Part shown: one piece after another, positions 1,738-54,228 of the stretch
Layout of the letters: every line of letters starts with the position of its first letter
How positions within the stretch are numbered: position 1 is the first letter of the stretch
NCBI GenBank assembly: GCA_025917655.1
Contig: CP084612.1
Location: forward strand, 1,550,001 to 1,614,000
From: Chlorella sorokiniana
Taxonomy: Eukaryota; Chlorophyta; Trebouxiophyceae; Chlorellales; Chlorellaceae
Reading direction: 5' to 3'
DNA length: 64,000 nucleotides
Made by a program: the position numbers and the translations under genes
The notes under the pieces: generated by a model
Databases searched by the model: none
What the model was told of the DNA's origin: nothing
What the model saw: the letters and a program-made list of their open reading frames with translations, nothing else

Positions 1738-6480
<4,743 letters not shown>

Positions 6481-12900: not shown

Positions 12901-14620
12901 CCGCTGTGCGTTGCAGGTGGGACGACGGGCGGCCCAGCTCTGCCAAGGCGCGGGAGGGGCGGCACGCGTACGACTGGATCGCGGGGCTGTTTGACGGCGC
13001 GCGGCGTGCGGCGCAGCGAGCCCGCGACCACCTGGTCAACTTCATCGCCATCCGGGTGAGGGGGCGTTGCAGGCTACGTGTTGAGGACTAGCGAGCGCTT
13101 GCTCTGGCCTGAGGGGTTGGCCAGGCTGCCCGGAGGGCGTGAGAATGGTTTTCATGAACGTGCGGCTCAGTTTTTGTCTCAGTTCTTGTCCCACCCATCC
13201 ACCCGCCGCCACCACCCTGCAGCTGGTGTACGGAGAGCTGCGGGAGCTGATCTTCGAGCGACTGTACCGCTTCCACGTCCAAGTGTCCCGCCTGGAAATG
13301 GTGCTGCAGGTGCGGGGGTGCGTTGGGAGGGGAGGGTGCAGGGTTGGGTCGAGAGTCTGCACGAACATTAAACGCTTGGCAATGCTTTCCCAATGTGTGC
13401 TGTGCTGGCTGCTGCTGCCGCTGCTTCTGCTTGCCTCCCCAATCCTCTTGAGCCCCTGCCCAAGCAGAGCGTTCCCGACCAGAGCATGCGCCCGCCCGCC
13501 CCCAGGAGCTGGACCGGCTGCTGGCCGACATCTGTGCCCACGTGCACGACGCGCTGCCGCCGCACCTGGGCCGCGGCGTGTGCGCTGCGCTGGCCGCGGC
13601 GGTGCAGAGCGTGCTGCTGGACGGCGGGCCGTACCGCCTGTTCACCCCCAGGACGTGGACATGCTGGAGGTGGACATGGCGCAGGTGGGGCGTTGTGGCG
13701 CGCTCACCTTTATTGCAGTGGTTCAGCTTGCAGGCTGAAGTGAAGTGTGTTGTTACAAGCAATGGTTGGGAATGTCCAAGGGGCCGCTTGTGGGAGGCGG
13801 CACTGGGGGTCTCTGACAGCCAGTCCTGCCCAGCCTTGCAGCCGCTGGCCCCCGCCCGCTCCCCTCTACTCTCACCCATTGACACCCACCCACACACCAT
13901 TCGCCTGCCGGGTGCGGCGCAGATGCGCGCCGTGTTCTTCGCCGACGGCGAGGGCATCTCCCTGGAGGAGGTGGACGCGCTGTGCCGCTCGCTGAGCGAC
14001 GTGGTGGACCTGATGCAGCTGGACACCGGGCTCATCATCCAGAACCTGAAGCAGGTGGGCGGGTGGCGGGTTGTGGGGGCCTGTTGCTGGCGCCGTGGTG
14101 CGGCGCTCAAGTGTTTTTTGCGCTGTGCCGAGTGTTGAGTCACCAGAGCGAAGGCCAAGGCCGTCGATGAGCCAAAACAGGCTGGCAGAGATGGTGGTGG
14201 CGGCCGTCGCTGTGCTGCCCTCCGGTGGAGCTCACTGCCGTCCGCCACCACGCCCGCCGCGGCACCGCAAACCCCACCGCGCCGCAGGCCAAGCACACGC
14301 TGGGCAAGCACGGCAAGTCGCCGCGGGGCACACCTGCCGCCATGGACCCGGACGTGCTGCTGCGCATACTGTGCCACCGCGCCGACCACGCGGCCTCCAA
14401 GTACCTGAAGAAGGAGCACAAGATCCCCAAGAAGATCCCGGGATCCCTGTCCACCTCCGTCTCAGACATCACACACAAAGCCACCGGCGGCCTGCTGCGT
14501 CGGGGAAGACCGCGTGAGCGCTGCACCGGCAGCTTTGCGCTGAGGGCCTACCAGCAGGCCTCCCGAGTTGCTAAGTTTTTTAATGGCAAGGATGCGCTCC
14601 GCTGGGCACAGCAGATGTAA
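6917..14620 (+). CDS. PATROL1-like MUN-domain (DUF810) trafficking protein
   Basis: Homologue of Arabidopsis PATROL1, a Munc13-like protein known to help deliver the plasma-membrane proton ATPase; here the role is inferred to be vesicle tethering. About 18 exons. Diagnostic stretches in order are QDRRALLRYLLQ (start), FDEWLLDALSVERLLKQL, LKELAYAIFLSCGG, FDSFRNFVKWRETVTSVVWL, IFDTLDEGQYNDHRQELLKL, VFAWVHYRQFALSQELLLLE, RIVLLAAASTELFRAEA, VVETIKIVTETLEALFDMRL (11580), YKRELAVAAEG, VYGELRELIFERLYRF, LDTGLIIQNLKQ and a tail near 14340-14450 with VLLRILCHRADHAASKYLKK then EHKIPKKIPG. The plant protein ends very soon after the matching segment; here the frame continues about 45 residues to TAA at 14618, the last part lying in the repeat array. 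Several exon joins do not fit perfectly, for example near 7492/7787, as elsewhere in the window. Confidence 0.88.
11544..11567 (+). repeat. A-rich tract in a PATROL1-like intron
   Basis: A run of A followed by AAT triplets lies about 10 bases before the acceptor CAAGCAG at about 11578. It is striking in such a GC-rich region. A similar tract sits in an intron of the TauE-like gene. Confidence 0.7.
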
Positions 14621-15026
14621 TCGCAAGGGCTGTCAAGCGGCTGCATACACGGAGGCCTCACAGCACATTTGCTCAGATCTCATGTGTCTGGTGCTGGTGA
14701 AGCTCAGTTGCCTGCGCAGTTGCCTCGGTGGAGTCTCCGCTGCACAGTCTGCCGCCTCTCGCGGCTGGTGCGCAAGCATGCGGGCATACACAAGTTGGGC
14801 CAGGGAGGAGAGCAGTGAAGCGCTGAGGACAACTACTGAGCAGCAGGAATGGCAGGAGCAGCAGCAAATGCATGTCACTGATTTCACTGAACCCCAAAGA
14901 GCCAGGCCCCATTTCTCCAGAGCAATTTGTGATAAGACCAGGGGCGTCAAGATGCACCCGCTGTCAGTCTCCATTCATGTGTCTGCCCCCTCCTATGCCT
15001 CCTCCTATGCCTGCCAAACTGCACAG

Positions 15027-15970
15027 TTACACGCTCGGCTTGGCAGCCATGTACAGCGCGGTGCCTCCAAGGCCCACCAAGCACAGGATGTAACAGCGGT
15101 CGCTGCCCGACTGCCGCAGAAACTTATCGACCTTGCTGTCAACAACACTGCCGAACTCTTCCATCTCGGTGGCCAGGCTCCCAACCTTGGCATCCAAGTC
15201 TGCAATGCTCTTTGCAACCTTGGTATCCAAGTCTGCAATGCTCTTCGCAACCTTGGTATCCAAGTCTGCAATGCTCTTCGCAATCCTGGTATCCATGTCC
15301 GCAATGCTCTTCTGCCTCTCTTCCGTGCTGGGTCAAGCTGGTCAAGCTTGACCTTCGCAGTGAAGATAGGCAGAAGAGCATCGCAGACTTGGATACCAGG
15401 ACTGCGAAGAGCATTGCAGACTTGGACACCAAGGTTGCGAAGAGCATTGCAGACTTAGACACCAAGATTGGAAGTCTGGATGCCAAGATGGAAGGGCATT
15501 GCTAGACTTGGGTGCCAAGATTGGAAGCCTGGATGAACCAGCCGGAGATGGCGCCGCCTAGCACCGCAGCCACCCCCATCACAAGGAACGCTGCCACCAC
15601 GGGAGCTTGCAGTTCCCGCAGGAAGCCCTGCACAACATGGCAGTGGGTGCAGCTTGAGGCACACCGCTCAGCATGCCAAGCAACACGCAGAAGCTGAAAC
15701 TCAAGGCAGGCCACTCCAATGTGCGTCAAACAAGCAATTGAAACCGAAACTCGCCTGCACTGGGCGGTCACCATCGCCGCCGCCGCCGCCGCCGCTGCCG
15801 CCGCCGCCTCCTCGCCGTCCGAGGGCAGCTGTACGAGAGCAGCCGTCCGAGAGCAGCTGCCGGGGAGCGCAGCGCGCCCGCCCCTGAGCCACAACGCACG
15901 AAGCCACAGCCGCGCGCCTGCGGCTTGTCTCGCGCAGCGCCGACTACCGCTATCAGCAACGTACGCATAA
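15027..15970 (-). pseudogene. Array copy A: disrupted coiled-coil membrane protein gene
   Basis: First unit of the array. The Gly-rich first exon ends at 15755 with a GC donor (CAG then GCGAGT), and exon 2 begins at 15627 with GFLRELQAPVVAAFLVMGVA. After the first membrane segment the frame stops at about 15502 because the following 300 bp are a foldback in which the coiled-coil repeats are inverted. The C-terminal half survives as a separate minus frame at 15027-15296: four KSIADLDTKVA repeats, then a stem, then ILCLVGLGGTALYMAAKP. The targeting exon is diverged and lacks the MHITC start seen in copies B to E. As it stands it cannot make the full protein; either half could still be expressed, but I infer a broken copy. 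Confidence 0.7.
15196..15490. repeat. Foldback (inverted repeat) made of 33-bp coiled-coil repeats
   Basis: The left arm 15196-15339 reads as KSIADLDTKVA repeats on the minus strand. The right arm 15354-15490 reads the same repeats on the plus strand (KSIADLDTRTA, KSIADLDTKVA, then DTKIGSLDAKM). The centre 15340-15353 is the perfect palindrome GGTCAAGCTTGACC. On either side GCTCTTCTGCCT and AGGCAGAAGAGC are exact complements. The arms should form a long hairpin. Confidence 0.85.
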
Positions 15971-16720
15971 TTACGATGTGGACAACCTACGAGGCATGAT
16001 AGAGGTGCCGAGGGCAGGGCGAGCCCGCGCCAAGGTTCCAGGAAGCTGGCGTGTATCAACTCTGTGCTCGCGGCACCTCATCCATCAGACTCAAGCTTTC
16101 GTACGAAGTGGTCAGCGACAAAGGCGCAAAGTGGCTTTGTGAGGCCTGTTGCGTCGGCGGCAGTCTGCATGAGCAGTGCGGCGGCATCTGCAATTGTGTG
16201 CTGAAGCCCTACTTGGGAGGCTATCTGAGGGCAAGATGTGTCCACCATCAACAGAAGTGATGTGTGTGCTGTGCCCCCAGATGTGATTGCAAGAGCTGTG
16301 AAGCAGCTGCATACTCGCAAGAGCTGTCAAGCAGCTGCATACACGGAGGCCTCACAGCACATTTGCTCAGATTTCGTGTGTCTGGTGCTGGTGTAGCTCA
16401 GTTGCCTGCACACTTGCCTTGGTGGAGTCTCCGCTGCACATCTGCCGCCTCACGCGGCTGGTGCGCAATCATGTGGGTGTGCACAGGTCAGGCTAGGGCG
16501 GAAGAGCAGGGAAGCGCTGAGTTTGACAACTGAGCAGCAGGATTGGCAGCAGCAGCAGATGATGAAGTTCACTGATTCAAATAGATCCCCAAAAACGCCA
16601 GCCCCAAAGCGGTGTGTGATCAGACCAGGGACGTTGTGATGCAGCCGCTGACGGTCTGGTCTGCGCATCTCCTTTCATATGTGCACCCCTGTTTTGCTGT
16701 CAAGCTGCACAGTTACACGC

Positions 16721-17482
16721 TCACCGGGGCTTGGCAGCCATGTACAGCGCGGTGCCTCCAAGGCCCACCAAGCACAGGATGTAACAGCGGTCGCTGCCCG
16801 ACTGCCGCAGAAACTTATCGACCTTGCTGTCACCACGACTGCCCCAGCTCTTTGATGCTTGTTTGCAGCTCTTTGACGCTCATTAGCAAGCCTTCCAATT
16901 GGGGGTCCAAGCTCTTGATCTCGGCGCACAGGCTGGTCCGCACAGCTTCGCTTGTGGTATCGATTTTGGTCCCCAGGCTGCCTTCAGCAGCATTGATGCT
17001 GCACCCAAGCTCGGTCAGCTTCATCGATAGCTGAATGGTGCCAAGCACTGCACCCACAATGAGCGGCGCCACCATGGCATCGCCCAGTTCACGCAAAAAG
17101 ACCTGCACACAACAGCAGTACTAGTGGGTGCAGGCATTCGAGGCAGGCCGGTTGAATGTGCGCAGACAAGAACAGGGACTTGAAGCATAGATACAAGCCA
17201 ATGGATCATGCTAGGCAAATACAACACATGGAAACAAAACTTGCCTGCGCTGGGCGGTCACCATCGCCGCCGCCACCGTTACCGCCGCCGGCCACCGCTG
17301 TAGCCTCGTCCACCGTCGCCGCCGCCTCGCTGGCTGCCGCCCTCCAACTGGGAGGAAGACAGAGCAGCTGTCCGGGGAGCGTACCGCGCCCGCCCCTGAG
17401 CCTTCACGCACGAAGTCACTGGCGCGCGCCTGCGGCTCGCTGACAGGGGTGAGATCGGCGCTGCACGGCACGTGATATGCAT
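16721..17482 (-). pseudogene. Array copy B: diverged coiled-coil membrane protein gene
   Basis: Exon 1 is 17245-17482, beginning MHITCRAAPISPLSASRRR, and exon 2 starts at 17102 with VFLRELGDAMVAPLIVGAVL. The coiled-coil region differs from the other copies (GSLGTKIDTTSEAVRT, MSVKELQTSIKELG). The C-terminus CYILCLVGLGGTALYMAAKP is nearly identical to copy A. Two things break it as written: exon 1 is 238 nt, so the Gly-rich frame does not join the start frame, and a one-base difference near 16845 puts a TGA before the last membrane segment. Either could be a sequence error, but together they suggest a decayed or poorly assembled copy. Confidence 0.6.
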
Positions 17483-18291
17483 GATGAAGACGCGGACAAT
17501 CTAGGAGGCGTGACGGAGGTGCATGAGGGCAGGGCGAGGACAGGCTCACAGCGTGCCCAGCACGCTGCATGGGGGTGCAGGGCACCCGAGTGTTCCCTTT
17601 CGGGAGAGATGGCGTGCATCAACTCTTTGATTGTGGCATGTCCATCCATTAGGCTTCACTGCTGAGACACAGGGGTCAGTGGCCAGGGCGCAAAGTAGCT
17701 TTGCGCTGCCTGCTGCGTTGGGGCAGGACAGCGTGAGCGCTGCGGCGCCTGCAGCATCCGCAACTGTGTGCTGAGGCCTACTTGGGAGGCTTCCTGACGG
17801 GCCAGGTGTTTCCCCCATTGATGTAAGCGGCGCGCTCTGCAATGCACAGCAGACAGAATCGCAGACTCTGTTGCGCAGCCGCATGCACGGAGGCGCCGCT
17901 GCAGTTGTGCTCAGATCTCATATGTCCGGTCCTGGTGAAGCGGTTGCCTGCACGATTCCCTCTGTGGAGTCTCTGCTGCACAATCTGCCGCCTCTCGCTG
18001 CTGGTGCGCAAGCATGCGGGCATACACAAGCTGGGCCAGGGAGGAGAGCAGTGAAGTGCTGAGGACAATTACTGAGCAGCAGGAATGGCAGGAGCAGCAG
18101 CAGGAATGGCAGCAGCAGCACCAGAAAAGGTCGTTAACTTTGCTGGTACCCCAAGAGCGCCGGCCCCATTTCCTCAGAGCGTTCTGTGATCAGACCAGGT
18201 ACGTCGTGATGCACCCGCTGACGGTCCAGTCTGCGCATCTCCGTTTTTGTGTCTACCCCTCCTGCGCCTGCCAAGCTGTACAGTTACACGC

Positions 18292-18980
18292 TCACCACGG
18301 CTTGGCAGCCATGTACACCACGGTGCCTCCAAGGCCCACCAAGCACAGGTTGTACCAGCGGTCATTAGCCCTTTGCGTTAGAATTGACGCAAGAATCTCG
18401 TCGAGCGTGCTGTTGAGCCGGGTGCCGAGCAAATCCATCTTGGCATCCAGGCTCCCAATCTTAGTATCCAAGTCTGCAAAGCTCTTCTGCATTGTTGCAG
18501 CGCTGCATTCAAGCTTGTCCAGCTTGCACCAGCACGAGATGGTGCCGCCCACCACCGCAGCCACCCCCACCACAAGGAACGCTGCCTCCACGGGAGCTTG
18601 CAGTTCCCGCAGGAAGCCCTGCACAACATGGCAGTGGGTGCAGCCCGCTCGAGCACACCCAGCAATCACCCAGAGCCAACAGGTCAAGGTAGGCCACTCG
18701 CTTGTGCGCTCAACAAGCATCTGGAACCGAAACTTGCCTGCGCTGGGCGGTCACCATCGCCGCCGCCACCGTTACCGCCGCCGCCGCCACCGCTGTCACC
18801 TCGTCCACCGTCGCCGCCGCCTCGCTGGCTGCCGCCCTCCAACTGGGAGGCAGACATGGCTGTAGCTGTCGGAGGGGCGTAGCGCGGCCGCCCCTGAGCC
18901 GTCACGCACGAAGCAACCGCGGCGCGCCTGCGGCTCGCTGATAGGGGTGAGATCGGCGCTGCACGGCACGTGATATGCAT
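18292..18980 (-). CDS. Array copy C: intact small coiled-coil, two-membrane-span protein (unknown family)
   Basis: The only copy that reads through without a break: 189 residues from exon 1 (18738-18980) and exon 2 (18292-18618), joined in phase 0 over a GC-AG intron. Residues 1-45 are Arg-, Ala- and Ser-rich with almost no acid (MHITCRAAPISPLSASRRR), like an organelle transit peptide. About 50-80 is a Gly/Asn-rich spacer ending DGDRPAQ. Exon 2 opens with GFLRELQAPVEAAFLVVGVA, a membrane helix. The coiled coil follows (KSFADLDTKIGSLDAKMDLL, then LNSTLDEILASILTQRANDR), then the second helix WYNLCLVGLGGTVVYMAAKP and the stop. I do not recognise a family. The layout recalls organelle membrane proteins with a coiled coil between two helices, but no motif ties it to one; function is unknown. 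Confidence 0.7.
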
Positions 18981-19590
18981 GATGAAGATGCGGACAAACT
19001 AGGAGGCGTGACGGAGGTGCATGAGGGCAGGGCGAGGACAGGCTCACAGCATGCCCAGCACGCTGCATGGGGGTGCAGGGCACCCGAGTGTTCCCTTTCG
19101 GGAGAGATGGCGTGCATCAACTCTTTGATTGTGGCGCTCCATCCATCAGACTTGAATGTTGACACAGGGGTCAGCGGCGAGGGCGCAAGAGGTTTGCATG
19201 GCCTGCTGCGTCGGGGCAGGACCGCGTGAGCACTGCGGCGCCTGCAGCATCCGCAACCGTGTGCTGAGGCCTACTTTGAAAGGCTACCTGAGGGGCCAGG
19301 TGGTTCCATCATCAATAGAAACGACGCGATCTGCGAGGCACAGCAGGTGCAATCGCGGGAGCTGTCAAGCAGCTGCATACACGGAGGCGCCGCTGCACTT
19401 GTGCTCATTGCAGCACAGCAGCAGGAAAAAGTGACTGAATTCATGTTCCCCCAGAGTACCAGTCCCAATTTCCAAAGCGGTGTATGCTCAACCACGGACG
19501 TAATGTTGACCCTGCCTGTCCAGTCAGCACATCTCCTTTCATGTGTCTATCCCCTCCTGCGCCAGCCAACCCCTCCGTAGAATTACACGC

Positions 19591-20259
19591 TCACCGCGGC
19601 TTGGCAGCCATGTACAGCGCGGTGCCCCCAGGGCCAATGCGCACATTGTATACCAGCGGTCGCGGGTTGCCTGCTGCAGGAATTGATCGAGTCGCTTGTC
19701 CACACAACTGCTGAGGGCGTCCACGCTTGTCTGCACCTGGTCCACCTTCATTTCCAGCTTGTCCAGCTTGAGATAAGACAAGGAAGACATGGTGGTGGGC
19801 CCCATCAACGCGGCCGCCCCCGCCACTACGAGCGGGGCCACCATGTCATCGCCCTGTTCACGCACAAAGCCCTGCACACACCGGCAGTGGGTGCAGGCAT
19901 TCAAGGCAGACCGCTCAGGTGGGTGCAGCAAGGACAGGAAAACCAAACTATAGGCAGGCCATTACAGCGCGCTAGGCAAGCACATGGAACCGAAACTTGC
20001 CTGCGCTGGGCGGTCGCTCCCGCCACCACCGCCGCCACCGTTACCGCCACCGCCGCCACCGTTACCGCCACCGCCGCCACCGTTACCGCCACCGCCGCTG
20101 TAGCCTCGCCGGCTGCCGCCCTCCGCCTGGGACGCAGCCAGGGCAGCTGTTCGGGGCGTACCGCGCCCGCCCCTGCGCCACCACGCACGAAGCAACCGCG
20201 GCGCGCCTGCGGCTCGCTGACAGGGGTGAGATCGGCGCTGCACGGCACGTGATATGCAT
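19591..20259 (-). CDS. Array copy D: coiled-coil membrane protein, frame disturbed
   Basis: Exon 1 is about 20001-20259 and exon 2 19591-19871. The Gly-rich spacer is the longest of the family, built from repeats of GGGGNG-type coded by an 18-21 bp CCGTTACCGCCACCGCCG-like unit. Exon 2 starts GFVREQGDDMVAPLVVAGAA and has its own coiled coil (KLDKLEMKVDQVQTSVDALS, then DKRLDQFLQQATRDRWYTM). The last helix loses frame at about 19629, where five G are present on the minus strand and six would restore the family ending GGTALYMAAKP. Exon 1 also joins only in a frame that does not begin with the shared MHITC start. This could be an active gene with under-called bases or a decaying one. Confidence 0.5.
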
Positions 20260-20955
20260 GATAAAGATGCGGACAAACTAGGAGGCGTGACAGAGGTGCA
20301 TGAGGGCAGCGCAGGAGAGGCTCACAGCATGCCCAGCACGCTGCATGGGGGTGCACCTGAGTGTTCCCTTTCGAGAGAGATGGCGTGCTCAACTCTGTGG
20401 CTTTCGACATATTCATCCATCAGACTTGTGAGACATAGGGGTCAGTGGCCAGGGCGCAAAGTAGTTTTCGCTGCCTGCTGCGCTGGGGCAGGACAGCGTG
20501 AGCGCTGCGGTGCCTGCGGCATCTGCAACCGTGTGCTTAAGGTCTGCTTGAAGGGCTGCATGAGGGGCCAGGTGTTTCATCATCTACGGAACGGCGCGCT
20601 CTGCGAGGACAGCAGATGAAATCGCAGAGGCTGTCGCGCAGCCGCATTTACGGAGGCGCCACTGCACTTGTGCTCAACTCTCATGTGTCCGGTCCTGGCT
20701 TGAAGCGGTTGCCTGCACAATTTCCTCAGTAGGGTCTCAGCTGCACAGTACCGCTGAACAGCAGGAATGGCAGCAGTAGCACCAGAAAAGGTCGTTAACT
20801 TTGCTGGTACCCCCAAGAGAGCGCCGGCCCCATTTCCCCAGAGCGGTCTGTGATCAGACCAGGGACGTCGTGATGCACCCGCTGACGGTCCAGTCTGCGC
20901 ATCTCCTCTTCTGTGTATATCCCTCCCATGCCTGCCAAACTGCTCAGTTACAAGC

Positions 20956-21700
20956 TCACCGCGGCTTGGCAGCCATGTACACCACGGTGCCTCCAAGGCC
21001 CACCAAGCACAGGTTGTACCAGCGGTCGCTGCCCGACTGCCGCAAAAACTGATCGACCTTGCTGTGAACAAGACTGCCAAACTCTTCCATCTCGGTGGCC
21101 AGGCTCTCAACCTTGGCATCCAAGTCTGCGATGCTCTTCGCAACCTTGGTATCCAAGTCTGCGATGCTCTTCGCAACCTTGGTGTCCAAGTCTGCAATGC
21201 TCTTCTGCATTGCTTCAGTGTGTGATTCAAGCTTGTCCAGCTTGCACCAGCACGAGATGGCGCCGCCCACCACCGCAGCCACCCCCACCACAAGGAACGC
21301 TGCCACCACGGGAGCTTGCAGTTCCCGCAGGAAGCCCTGCACAACATGGCAGTGGGTGCAGCTCGAGGCAGACCGCTCAGCATGCCAAGCAATCACGAAG
21401 TCAGAACTCAGGGTAGGCCACTCCAATGTGCGTCCAACAAGCAACCGGAACCGAAACTTGCCTGCGCTGGGCGGTCACCATCGCCGCCGCCACCGTTACC
21501 GCCGCCGCCGCCACCGCTGTAGCCTCGTCCACCGTCGCCGCCGCCTCGCCGGCTGCCGCCCTCTGCCTGGGAGGCAGCCAGAGCAGCTGTTCGGGGGCGT
21601 ACCGCGCCCTCCCCTGGGCCACCACGCACAAAGCAATCGCGGCGCGCCTGCGGCTCGCTGACAGGGGTGAGATCGGTGCTGCACGGCACGTGATATGCAT
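20956..21700 (-). CDS. Array copy E: coiled-coil membrane protein with 11-residue repeats
   Basis: Exon 1 is 21462-21700 and starts MHITCRAAPISPLSASRRR; exon 2 is 20956-21336. Exon 2 is fully open: GFLRELQAPVVAAFLVVGVA, the linker CWCKLDKLE, three KSIADLDTKVA repeats, ESLATEMEEFGSLVHSKVDQ, and the final helix WYNLCLVGLGGTVVYMAAKP. The repeats are 33 bp and 11 residues, a hendecad coiled-coil period. Exon 1 is 239 nt, one base short of joining in frame; the shortfall falls in a run of C near 21595, where copy B has the expected reading (YAPRTAAL). I take this as a probably functional copy with a likely sequence error. Product about 206 residues. Confidence 0.6.
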
Positions 21701-21790
21701 GATGAAGATGTGGACAAACTAGGAGGCGTGACAGAGGTGCATGAGGGTGGGGAAAGGAGAGAGGCACAGCGCACAGCGCAGAAGCCCACA

Positions 21791-51485: not shown

Positions 51486-53500
51486 CTACTGCAGCCGCCC
51501 GGCGGCAGGCTGGGGGCTCCCTGTCGGGGGCGGCAGGTCCAGCGTGCGGGTCAGGTTGAGGCGCTGCTCCAGCGAGCGCAGCTCGTAGCCGGTGATGAGC
51601 AGCCAGTACATGAGCTGGCTGAGCTCCTCGGCCGTGCAGTCGCTCATGCCGCCCTGCCACGCCTCCTCCTCCATGCCTGCGCACGTGCCGGGAGCCCGGG
51701 GTGGGTGGGTGCGTGGGTGGAGCGCAGCCAGGCCAGCAAGGGCCGGGAGCTAGGAAGTTTGCCGGGCACCGCCGAGGCAGGCTCGGCTCCTGCCGCGGTC
51801 TGGGACGTGTTTTCACGCGTGCAGGTGGTGCCGCCATCGCAAGCCTCCCGTCCCCACCGCAAAGGAACCAAAACACCACAGGGAATAAAAGGGAGCGAGA
51901 AGCGGCCCCTGCCACCCCCACTGCCCAATAAAACGAGTGGGCACACCCAACCACCCGGGCCCGGCGGGGGGCTCCTCACCCATGAGGCGCTGCACAAAGG
52001 CGTTCATGGCCTCCAGCACGTCCTCGCTGGCGCAGTCGGTCAGCTGCACCAGCTCGTCGGCGGTCAGGCACTTGAGGTAGTCCAGCAGCTCGTTGCCCGG
52101 CATCGGGCGCAGGCGCGCGTCGCCCTCCGCAGCCCGCTGGAACGCCGCCGCCTGCTGCTCCATCTGCGGCGGCGACACAAGGCACGGGCCTGGTGAACGG
52201 CGGGTGCGCCGGCTGCGGGGCCGTCGCCCGGCCCACCGGGGCGGCCGCGGATGGCGGCAGGGGCCGCGCGGCCTCGCCCTGGGCAGCACGGAAAGCAGGC
52301 AGGGGCGGCGGCGTGCGGCGCCGCGCCCGCACCTGCTGCTTCAGCGCCGCCACCTCCGCCTCCAGCTGCTCGATGTACTGCAGCGCGGGCACCACCTCCT
52401 TGCCGTGCTCGTGGTGCCAGCGCAGCACCTCCCCCTCAACCCGCACCTTCTGCGCTTGGGACGTGTGTGTGTGTGCGCGCGGGTAAGGATGGGATGGGAT
52501 GGAGCGAGGTGCGGGTGCAGTGAGGATGGAAGCAGCAGGGAGGGGTTCCGGGGAGATATGCTGGGCTCATCGCATGCCCCAAAGCAAGAACAGCAGCAGC
52601 GCCTCGGGGCACCGGGCCAGGCTGCCTCGGCTCCCCTGGATAACCCCCATTTGGCTGGCCCCGGGCGCACCTGCGACCCGGGCGCGTATGGCGAGCCCGC
52701 CACTGCCCCCTCCAGCCCGTCCATGCTGCCGCCGCTGGACACGCTGGCCAGGGAGGCCGCCGAGGAGGAGCGGGAGGGCTCTGCCAGCAGCGCGCGCGGG
52801 TGCTCCCCAGCGAGCGCGTCAGGCTCAGCCGCGTCCAAGCGTTGGCAAACATGTAGCCCGACATCAGCACGCTGTACATGAGCTGCGGCGGCGGCCAGGG
52901 AGGCACGGGGCGGGGCGGTCGCTGGCTGCGTCGCCGCAACCTGCTGGCTCCGCAGCCGCCGCTCGCGCGTGTGGCCCGCAGGTCCCGCCCCGCTGCCCAA
53001 ACATGATACAAACAGGCGCCGAAAGGGCAAGCTTGGTGCGACTGGAAGCTTATCGCGCACCTGGGCCAGGTTCTGTGCCTCTGTGCGGATCATAACCTGG
53101 AAGTACTCGGCGGGCAGCGTGCCCAGCATGGAGGCGATCGTCTGCCGCATCGCGATGATGACCTCCGGGTGCGCCGCGTTCTCAAACTGGGCCAGCAGTG
53201 TGGGGTCCACTTCCTGCACAAAGCTGCGGAGGGGGGCGGCGTGAGAGGGGGGGGGTGAGGTAGGGCGCGAGTCCGAGCGACAGGCGTGCTGGCGGTGCGG
53301 GTAGGGTTTTAGTTGGGAGGGCAGTACTGGGAAACGGGCCTGCCAGAGGGCGCAGCGGCTCACTTGAGCAGCGCGCTCTGCCGCTCGGGCCCCGGGTTCC
53401 AGGCGTCTGAGGCAGCCGCGCCCCAGTTGTCGCCGGCAGAGGCTACCACTGCGAGTCGCCGCGCTGCCGCTGCCGCGCGTCTGGCTGCGATCTGCGCCAT
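51486..53500 (-). CDS. Plastid DUF760 protein with two DUF760 domains
   Basis: The start MAQIAARRAAAAARRLAVVA is a plastid-like transit peptide (an upstream Met at 53629 is in the same frame). The first DUF760 domain reads FVQEVDPTLLAQFENAAHPE, IIAMRQTIASMLGTLPAEYF and MIRTEAQNLAQ, then LMYSVLMSGYMFANAWTRLS. A Ser/Pro/Arg-rich linker and a coiled helix (EVVPALQYIEQLEAEVAALK) lead to the second domain: ELLDYLKCLTADELVQLTDC, ASEDVLEAMNAFVQRLMGEE, SDCTAEELSQLMYWLLITGY and ELRSLEQRLNLTRTLDLPPP. Plant DUF760 proteins are stromal and some are substrates of the Clp protease; their activity is unknown. The domain order and the EYFxV, TEAxNLAQLMY and SGYxxR marks support the call well. Confidence 0.83.
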
Positions 53501-54228
53501 TCTGCTGCTTCGGCGCGCCCAAAATCTGTGGGTGACACTGCTGCAGCGTGGGAAGCGGGCGTGTGCCGCTCTCGAGCACTGCGCGGGCGCTCCTCTCGCA
53601 GACCAGGCTGTCGCTGCGACCGGCATCATTGCCCCAATGCTCCTCGCGTAGGGATGGAAGTGGCCGAGGGTCCCGCGTGAGGGGCAGTCACCGACTGAGG
53701 CAAGCCTCCACCGTGGGGTGCGGAGTCATGCAGGGAGCCCCTGTGGGCTTGGCAGGCCTCCCTAGCGATCCGTGAGGCAATAGCAAGCCCCCAGGGCGCC
53801 GGCAGAGGCAGGAGTGGGACCCGGGCCTGGCGAGCGCAGCATAGCAGGTGCATTTTGATATGTGCGGAGCTCCAACCGTGTCTCTGAGCTTTGCCGCTTC
53901 TTGCGCTACATTCTCAACCCTCCATAAAGGTGAGCAGATGGGGTGAAGCCGAAAAGCGCCCGCCTTTGGGCGCCGAAGTGAGGACCGCTGTCTTGGGCTC
54001 CTTGCCCATAGGCTGGGCTCCCTTGCGGCCCAGCAACATTGACCTTGTTCCTGTCTGCAACTCTGACCCAGTGCCAGGAGTCTAACGCCAGCGCATGCGA
54101 CCTCTCTACCAATTCAAAGACTCGTTGCGTGTTTCAACCGGTCTGGCGGTCGTGTAACCGCGCTATCCATGCTTGGGTTACTGCAGGGCCCAGGCACCGC
54201 TCCGACCCAAGCTCCTACAGACCCCGCC
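53501..54228. other. Divergent intergenic region, 728 bp
   Basis: It lies between the DUF760 gene (minus) and the next plus-strand gene. No coding frame is convincing. The last 130 bases (54090-54220) are less GC-rich and run into the ATG at 54229. Confidence 0.4.

What the first reader, a model, noticed from the sequence alone, without database searches (positions are those of the whole stretch)
14594..21790. Tandem five-copy family of unknown coiled-coil, two-span proteins
Each of five repeats carries the same minus-strand two-exon gene: basic targeting-like N-terminus, Gly-rich spacer, membrane helix, coiled coil, second membrane helix ending MAAKP. I can tie it to no known family. A local expansion of a small organelle-type membrane protein with a changing coiled coil suggests lineage-specific selection, for instance on oligomer partners, and is the best candidate here for an undescribed system.
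Basis: partly seen in the sequence, partly recalled or inferred. Interest (0 to 1): 0.82.

Follow-up and report, generated by a model that had tools for sequence, protein, structure and literature searches.

The report
Tandem algal membrane coiled-coil gene family
Five side-by-side copies of a small, fast-changing green-alga gene make (or once made) a protein with one membrane anchor and a long helix; the gene family is real and was not matched to a known family, but four of the five copies look damaged and its job is unknown.

Summary
The five minus-strand repeats are real and at the stated coordinates. They belong to a family of 14 recognisable copies plus a fragment in this Chlorellaceae-like genome. 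Shared anatomy: conserved ATG, Arg/Ala-rich N-terminus, Gly-rich block, predicted GC-AG intron, strong membrane helix, and an amphipathic helix of about 3.6-residue period, built partly of 33-nt (11-residue) units.

A, B and D are broken in exon 2; E has a one-base break at a C-run in exon 1. The "second membrane helix" is weak (0.73-1.46) and is missing or out of frame with the coiled coil in 7 of 12 copies assessed. Diversifying selection is not established: divergence is patchy, as gene conversion would give, with dN/dS mostly 0.5-1.4.

Database ORFs show the same stop in A and shift in B, but lack both breaks of copy J, so some damage may be homopolymer error or strain difference.

No curated family fits. 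Beyond this alga only one 31% coiled-coil match was found; algal proteomes could not be searched. Most likely: a young birth-and-death family of membrane-anchored rods. Function is inferred.

The parts
15027..15968 (-). Copy A: exon 1 15755-15968, exon 2 15027-15627. Broken: in-frame TAG at codon 42 of exon 2, and an inverted copy of the hendecad block
   Evidence: same stop in database ORF P0011
16721..17482 (-). Copy B: exon 1 17245-17482 (frame lost inside the Gly block), exon 2 16721-17102 (frameshift before the last 36 codons)
   Evidence: same exon-2 reading in database ORF P0007
18292..18980 (-). Copy C: the one window copy open from ATG to stop; exon 1 18738-18980, predicted GC-AG intron 18619-18737, exon 2 18292-18618; 189-residue predicted product
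   Evidence: exon 2 = P0001
19591..20259 (-). Copy D: exon 1 20001-20259 (N-terminus out of frame with the Gly block), exon 2 19591-19871 (frameshift inside the C-terminal segment); the shortest coiled coil of the five
20956..21700 (-). Copy E: exon 1 21462-21700 (N-terminus one base out of frame with the Gly block at a C-run), exon 2 20956-21336 intact, with three near-identical 11-residue units
   Evidence: exon 2 = P0002
15182..15312 (-). 33-nt tandem repeat coding 11-residue coiled-coil units in copy A (4.0 copies)
15373..15474 (+). Inverted 33-nt repeat block in copy A (3.1 copies)
21108..21205 (-). 33-nt tandem repeat in copy E (3.0 copies)
18981..19055 (-). Conserved 5' leader just upstream of copy C's ATG: identity 0.96 (B/C) and 0.95 (C/D), above the intron of the same pairs (0.57, 0.67); C/E equal at 0.81

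Best explanation
A young protein-coding gene family, seen in this search only in this alga, has spread by tandem duplication with gene conversion and frequent loss (birth and death). An intact copy would make a protein of about 190 residues. An Arg/Ala-rich N-terminus probably directs it to plastid or mitochondrion. A Gly-rich linker leads to one firm membrane helix that anchors it. A long straight amphipathic helix then self-associates into a rod, ending in [KR]-[LV]-D-x-[LIF]-[LI] in 10 of 12 copies read by eye (not C or G) and, in some copies, a weakly hydrophobic tail. Gain or loss of 33-nt units lengthens or shortens the rod by whole turns (11 residues = 3 turns) without changing its register. 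The likeliest job is an anchored spacer or scaffold at an organelle membrane. Shown: copies, anatomy, frames, first membrane helix, helix periodicity, unit-number differences. Inferred: splicing, targeting, oligomerisation, scaffold role.
For: 14 copies plus a fragment. ATG and GC donor in 13 of 13 aligned copies. First membrane helix kept in 5 of 8 lineages; binomial about 4e-4 at p=0.10 and 4e-3 at p=0.16. Hydrophobic period best at 3.52-3.64 in 8 of 8 copies tested, reached by at most 8 of 1000 shuffles in 6 of 8; [quoted passage not shown] N-terminal and Gly frames have the lowest N/S ratio of the three forward frames, 0.74 vs 0.90/1.08 and 0.64 vs 1.08/0.81 (weak: see against). AlphaFold gives one continuous helix 9-125 for copy E, pLDDT about 90-94 in residues 51-100. 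Unit-number differences among A, C and E, and in database ORF P0009.
Against: The non-coding leader used as control also has a frame at 0.80, and one reverse frame of the N-terminus is 0.73, so the frame signal is weak. In the first 105 nt of exon 2 the coding frame has the highest ratio of the three forward frames, 1.35 vs 0.91 and 0.89 (8 copies). Close-pair dN/dS is near 1: 1.31, 0.70, 0.98, 0.76, 1.41; one short pair (A/B tails) is 0.15 on three changes. 10 of 13 copies are not open from ATG to stop. For F and D the periodicity is weak, 38 and 74 of 1000 shuffles. The copy E model rests on 3 sequences with pLDDT 42-60 in residues 1-40, which hold the membrane helix; the copy F model has mean pLDDT 57. 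No RNA or protein data.
Confidence: 0.5

Rival explanations
1. A mostly dead array: duplicated, decaying copies of a dispensable orphan gene with no present function; the remaining open frames are by-products of a GC-rich genome and recent duplication.
For: 1 of 5 window copies and 3 of 13 aligned copies are open throughout. ATG-to-Gly phase is at chance. dN/dS is near 1 in most close pairs. N1 and N2 share a stop before the tail. The stop in A and shift in B are also in database ORFs.
Against: The first membrane helix and the helix periodicity persist in lineages at 31-41% nucleotide divergence from C. Exon 2 is open to its own stop in N1, N2, F, I, K, C and E. Splice sites and ATG are conserved.
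Confidence: 0.33
2. A technical layer, compatible with either of the above: many N-terminal frame breaks are homopolymer-length errors or strain differences in this assembly, so more copies are intact than it shows.
For: In D, E, G, I, J and K the frame-breaking change is placed at one C-run and is a shortening in 6 of 6. Database ORFs P0010 and P0012 of copy J lack both of its breaks, having one more C and one more G.
Against: A and N2 are out of frame for other reasons. Exon 2 of N1, N2, F, K and B is identical in database ORFs, including B's shift and the N1/N2 stop. P0012 stands for 2 contigs where P0010 stands for 4. The check on unrelated conserved genes did not complete.
Confidence: 0.4
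3. A non-coding repeat (satellite or mobile element) misread as genes.
For: The repeat extends beyond the frames into leader and 3' flank; a fragment without exon 1 lies on another contig.
Against: Low copy number, 12 of 14 copies on one contig; conserved ATG, splice signals and membrane helix; no Rfam match in the window.
Confidence: 0.07
4. A diverged member of a known membrane coiled-coil family such as DUF1640 (MCUR1/CCDC90) or DUF1664.
For: Similar ingredients: targeting sequence, coiled coil, membrane helix (PMC7519068, passages seen). DUF1664 is a weak match in 2 of 8 members, best E 0.03.
Against: DUF1664 is far below cut-off (14.6 against 34.6 bits), and a match above that cut-off lies elsewhere in the genome. 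The DUF1640 beta-layer motif is absent from the exon-2 proteins read.
Confidence: 0.05

Closest known systems
DUF1640 / MCUR1-CCDC90 / yeast Put6-Put7 (PF07798)
   Same: Membrane protein of prokaryotes and organelles with targeting sequence, coiled coil and membrane helix (PMC7519068 and PMC4786415, passages only)
   Different: Not among the families shown; no [aliphatic]-A-T-K-[polar]-[DE] motif; here the firm membrane helix is before the coiled coil, whereas in DUF1640 it is recalled to lie after it
DUF1664 (PF07889)
   Same: Weak local match in the coiled coil (E 0.03); membrane helix before a coiled coil (recalled for DUF1664)
   Different: 14.6 against a cut-off of 34.6 bits; a match above cut-off lies on contig C12
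Borrelia Bdr proteins (recalled, not tested)
   Same: Membrane-anchored paralogous family with variable numbers of 11-residue coiled-coil repeats
   Different: Bacterial; no sequence comparison made; anchor at the C-terminus as recalled
Tandem birth-and-death orphan gene families in general
   Same: Local clusters, patchy conversion, many damaged copies, no foreign homologue found
   Different: Variation by whole 11-residue units and a donor that is GC in 13 of 13 copies are peculiar to this one

Membership tests
DUF1640 / MCUR1 (PF07798) | Profile match | tested here: inconclusive
   Not among the families shown (lists cut at 25 of 28, 25 of 27 and 25 of 40); the genome search for PF07798 did not complete
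DUF1640 / MCUR1 (PF07798) | Beta-layer motif [aliphatic]-A-T-K-[polar]-[DE] at the start of the C-terminal stalk | tested here: not met
   No A-T-K in the exon-2 proteins listed (read by eye, not by script); motif from PMC4786415
DUF1664 (PF07889) | Profile match above 34.6 bits | tested here: not met
   14.6 bits in copy E; 2 of 8 members match at E<=1, best 0.03
Birth-and-death tandem gene family | Clustered paralogues with patchy conversion and mixed intact and broken copies | tested here: met
Birth-and-death tandem gene family | Expression of intact members | not testable with these tools
   no RNA-seq
Two-span membrane protein | Two hydrophobic helices above the usual 1.6 threshold (19-residue window; threshold recalled) | tested here: not met
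   First span 1.26-2.50 over 11 copies; second 0.73-1.46 over C, E, F, G, A, B; N1, N2, I and K end before it

The most novel reading that the evidence does not exclude
The proteins are membrane-to-membrane rulers: one straight helix with a membrane-seeking segment at each end, whose length is tuned in whole-turn steps by gain and loss of 33-nt units, so that a set of paralogues sets different membrane spacings in the organelle. A C-run in exon 1 that differs in length between copies, and for copy J between this assembly and database ORFs, would additionally switch copies on and off.
Probability: 0.06. Interest if true: 0.7.

Novelty: new member of a known kind. Interest (0 to 1): 0.33.

Why it matters
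If expressed, this is a compact natural series of membrane-anchored rods that differ by whole 11-residue units, useful for asking how coiled-coil length and register evolve and how new organelle membrane proteins arise. It also shows how the length of a homopolymer run can decide whether a copy of a young gene family in a GC-rich algal assembly looks alive or dead.

Tried and rejected
Rejected or left: non-coding RNA (none in the window). Known domain (weak, mostly coiled-coil matches; best E 1.2e-4 for copy E, DUF7118, below cut-off; others include Baculo_PEP_C 1.4e-4 and YvrJ 1.5e-4, cut-offs not shown for those members). Solved-structure relatives (ten at E 0.7-3, best E 0.0013, apolipoprotein A-IV; fold search, no match at E<=10). 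A prokaryotic source: none in genome contigs. A viral source: one 31% match over residues 35-99 of copy E, locus L036, taken as repeat composition and not followed. An extra intron in exon 1 to explain the frame breaks: a GT/GC donor near TTC|GTGCGT is not shared by F, G, N1 and N2 and would join copy C into the wrong frame (read, not scripted). Diversifying selection on the coiled coil: suggested (least identical segment in 8 of 9 pairs; unit misalignment may lower it) and by N1/N2, but not carried in the other pairs. The N1/N2 500-nt flank (0.42) is probably not homologous over its length and was not used. Copy M was left out of the 13-copy counts, copy A out of the counts; H and M were counted as failures in the 5-of-8 figure without a hydropathy run, and K's divergence from C was not measured. 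Species papers: searches listed none, one search listed 12, none opened. GC-AG introns in Chlorella: listings only. Hendecad and lineage-specific families: listings; DUF1640: listing. Of these, PMC4786415 and PMC7519068 were opened for passages only. The last protein search scored only the 7987 candidates sharing most words. One search stopped with a script error after its first results; one search repeated the failed part.
Full report
What is there. The window lies in a 38.8-Mb, 15-contig genome. Repeat analysis shows five diverged copies of one unit at 14.6-21.8 kb, 1.3-1.7 kb apart, all on the minus strand with the same layout.

Family size. Searches of the genome gave further copies: F and G (C10 about 1.158 and 1.157 Mb), H and I (1.517 and 1.519 Mb), J and K (1.491 and 1.492 Mb), M (1.487 Mb), and N1 and N2 on C4 (2.532 and 2.536 Mb). 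A fragment without exon 1 lies on C7. That makes 14 copies, 12 of them on C10. Such counts are lower bounds. Copy M was left out of the 13-copy alignment.

Gene anatomy. Thirteen of 13 aligned copies keep the ATG at the same place and GC at the donor place; 11 of 13 read GCRAGT, and F and J differ. Thirteen of 13 have CAG before the start of exon 2. The intron would be GC-AG throughout; there is no transcript evidence. Frame statistics are weak. The N-terminal and Gly frames have the lowest N/S ratio of the three forward frames (0.74 and 0.64), but one reverse frame of the N-terminus is 0.73 and the non-coding leader has a frame at 0.80. The first 105 nt of exon 2 show the opposite (1.35 in the coding frame), so purifying selection on its sequence is not seen.

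Intactness. In the window only C is open from ATG to stop. A has a stop at codon 42 of exon 2 and an inverted hendecad block. B loses frame in the Gly block and again in exon 2. D loses frame before the Gly block and in the tail. E loses frame by one base before the Gly block but has an intact exon 2. Across 13 copies the ATG-to-Gly distance modulo 3 is 0 in five (B, C, F, H, N1), 1 in four (A, D, G, N2) and 2 in four (E, I, J, K), as chance would give. Three of 13 (C, F, N1) are open from ATG to their stop; N1 stops before the tail. In D, E, G, I, J and K the frame-breaking change is placed at one C-run and is a shortening in 6 of 6.

Other copies of the same DNA. A profile search of 5.8 billion proteins predicted from public genomes and metagenomes gave 11 proteins, and each matches this genome at 96-100%. 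They are identical to exon 2 of C, E, B, N1, N2, F and K. P0003 differs from I at 2 of 199 positions, one of them the start codon, and P0010 (with P0012) is J. P0011 has A's stop and P0007 B's shift. The sources of these two are not shown, but the longest contig holding them is 96,809 bases, shorter than this genome's 2.2-Mb contig, so they probably come from another assembly, whose independence is unknown. P0010 and P0012 (JGI) have one more G and one more C than this assembly and read in frame through both places in J. So some breaks recur and some may be homopolymer errors or strain differences. P0009 matches copy A minus one 11-residue unit; its contig is 2.2 kb, and a collapse in assembly is possible. 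Algal proteomes as such were not searchable, so 'only in this alga' is a statement about these searches.

Protein features. The first membrane helix scores 1.83-2.50 in C, E, F, G, A, B, N1, I and K, 1.55 in D and 1.26 in N2. The tail scores 0.73-1.01 in C, E, F and G and 1.46 in A and B. It is missing or out of frame with the coiled coil in B, D, I, J, K, N1 and N2, 7 of the 12 copies assessed (H and M not assessed). Neutral simulation from copy C gives 0.05-0.10 per lineage for keeping an open, hydrophobic first helix at 30-40% divergence. Five of eight lineages keep it (B, F/G, I, J/K, N). D at 1.55 does not, and H and M are counted as not. The binomial value is about 4e-4 at 0.10 and 4e-3 at 0.16. 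The lineages are not independent, so this is approximate. The following helix has its best hydrophobic period at 3.52-3.64 in 8 of 8 copies tested; 0-8 of 1000 shuffles reach it in six, 38 in F and 74 in D. This is close to 3.63 for a straight helix and 3.67 for hendecads (PMC4786415, passages). AlphaFold predicts one continuous helix in copy E (mean pLDDT 72.5, 3 sequences) and, at low confidence, in F (57.3, 7 sequences). Long single helices are a common default, so this is weak support. Foldseek found no PDB match.

Evolution. Close pairs give dN/dS of 1.31 (N1/N2, 30 against 7 changes), 0.70 (C/E), 0.98 (F/G), 0.76 (E/A tail), 1.41 (A/E membrane helix) and 0.15 (A/B tail, three changes). 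Nine more distant pairs give 0.52-0.84 in eight and 1.20 in one, I/D (protein-guided alignments). The coiled coil is the least identical segment in 8 of 9 pairs. Divergence is patchy: N1/N2 have 1 change in 246 sites of exon 1 and intron but 36 in 339 of exon 2 (exon 2 against intron p 1.5e-4). F/G lean the same way (p 0.014). C/E lean the other way, 42 in 300 against 30 in 122 (p 0.01), with 2 in 84 in the membrane helix. J/K show no difference (p 0.11). Gene conversion explains the patchwork best. Selection on oligomer partners is neither shown nor excluded.

Known families. Pfam, NCBIfam and PDB sequence searches gave weak, mostly coiled-coil matches, below cut-off wherever a cut-off was shown. 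A DUF1664 match above cut-off lies elsewhere in the genome. The family is therefore unassigned, but orphan tandem families are a known kind of thing.

Verdict. The anchored-rod mechanism is inference from anatomy. Interest is moderate.

Noticed in passing
L030 2355-2731 (C7:1732.85-1733.23 kb): Fragment with the exon-2 membrane helix followed by an inverted hendecad block, the same odd arrangement as copy A, beside unrelated sequence and without exon 1.
   Followed up: partly
copy J, L029 about 2150-2460 (C10:1.49065-1.49096 Mb): Two one-base homopolymer differences (C-run in exon 1, G-run in exon 2) between this assembly and database ORFs P0010/P0012 decide whether the copy reads in frame.
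   Followed up: partly
18732-18737 and the equivalent place in the other aligned copies: The intron donor is GC, never GT, in 13 of 13 aligned copies, while a PsaD intron of this genome appears to start with GT (inferred from a Val codon after the exon).
   Followed up: partly
just after the stop of copies A-G: TGTAA, recalled as the green-algal poly(A) signal, lies within about 5 bases of the stop, or overlaps it (copy A), in 7 of 7 copies checked.
   Followed up: no
52344-53579 minus; 2796-3737 plus: ORFs matching DUF760 (PF05542) and part of HSP70 (PF00012), ordinary neighbours; 7 of the 9 ORFs scanned matched nothing.
   Followed up: no
L036 3001-3267: A viral contig matches the coiled-coil part of copy E at 31% identity; probably repeat composition.
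   Followed up: no
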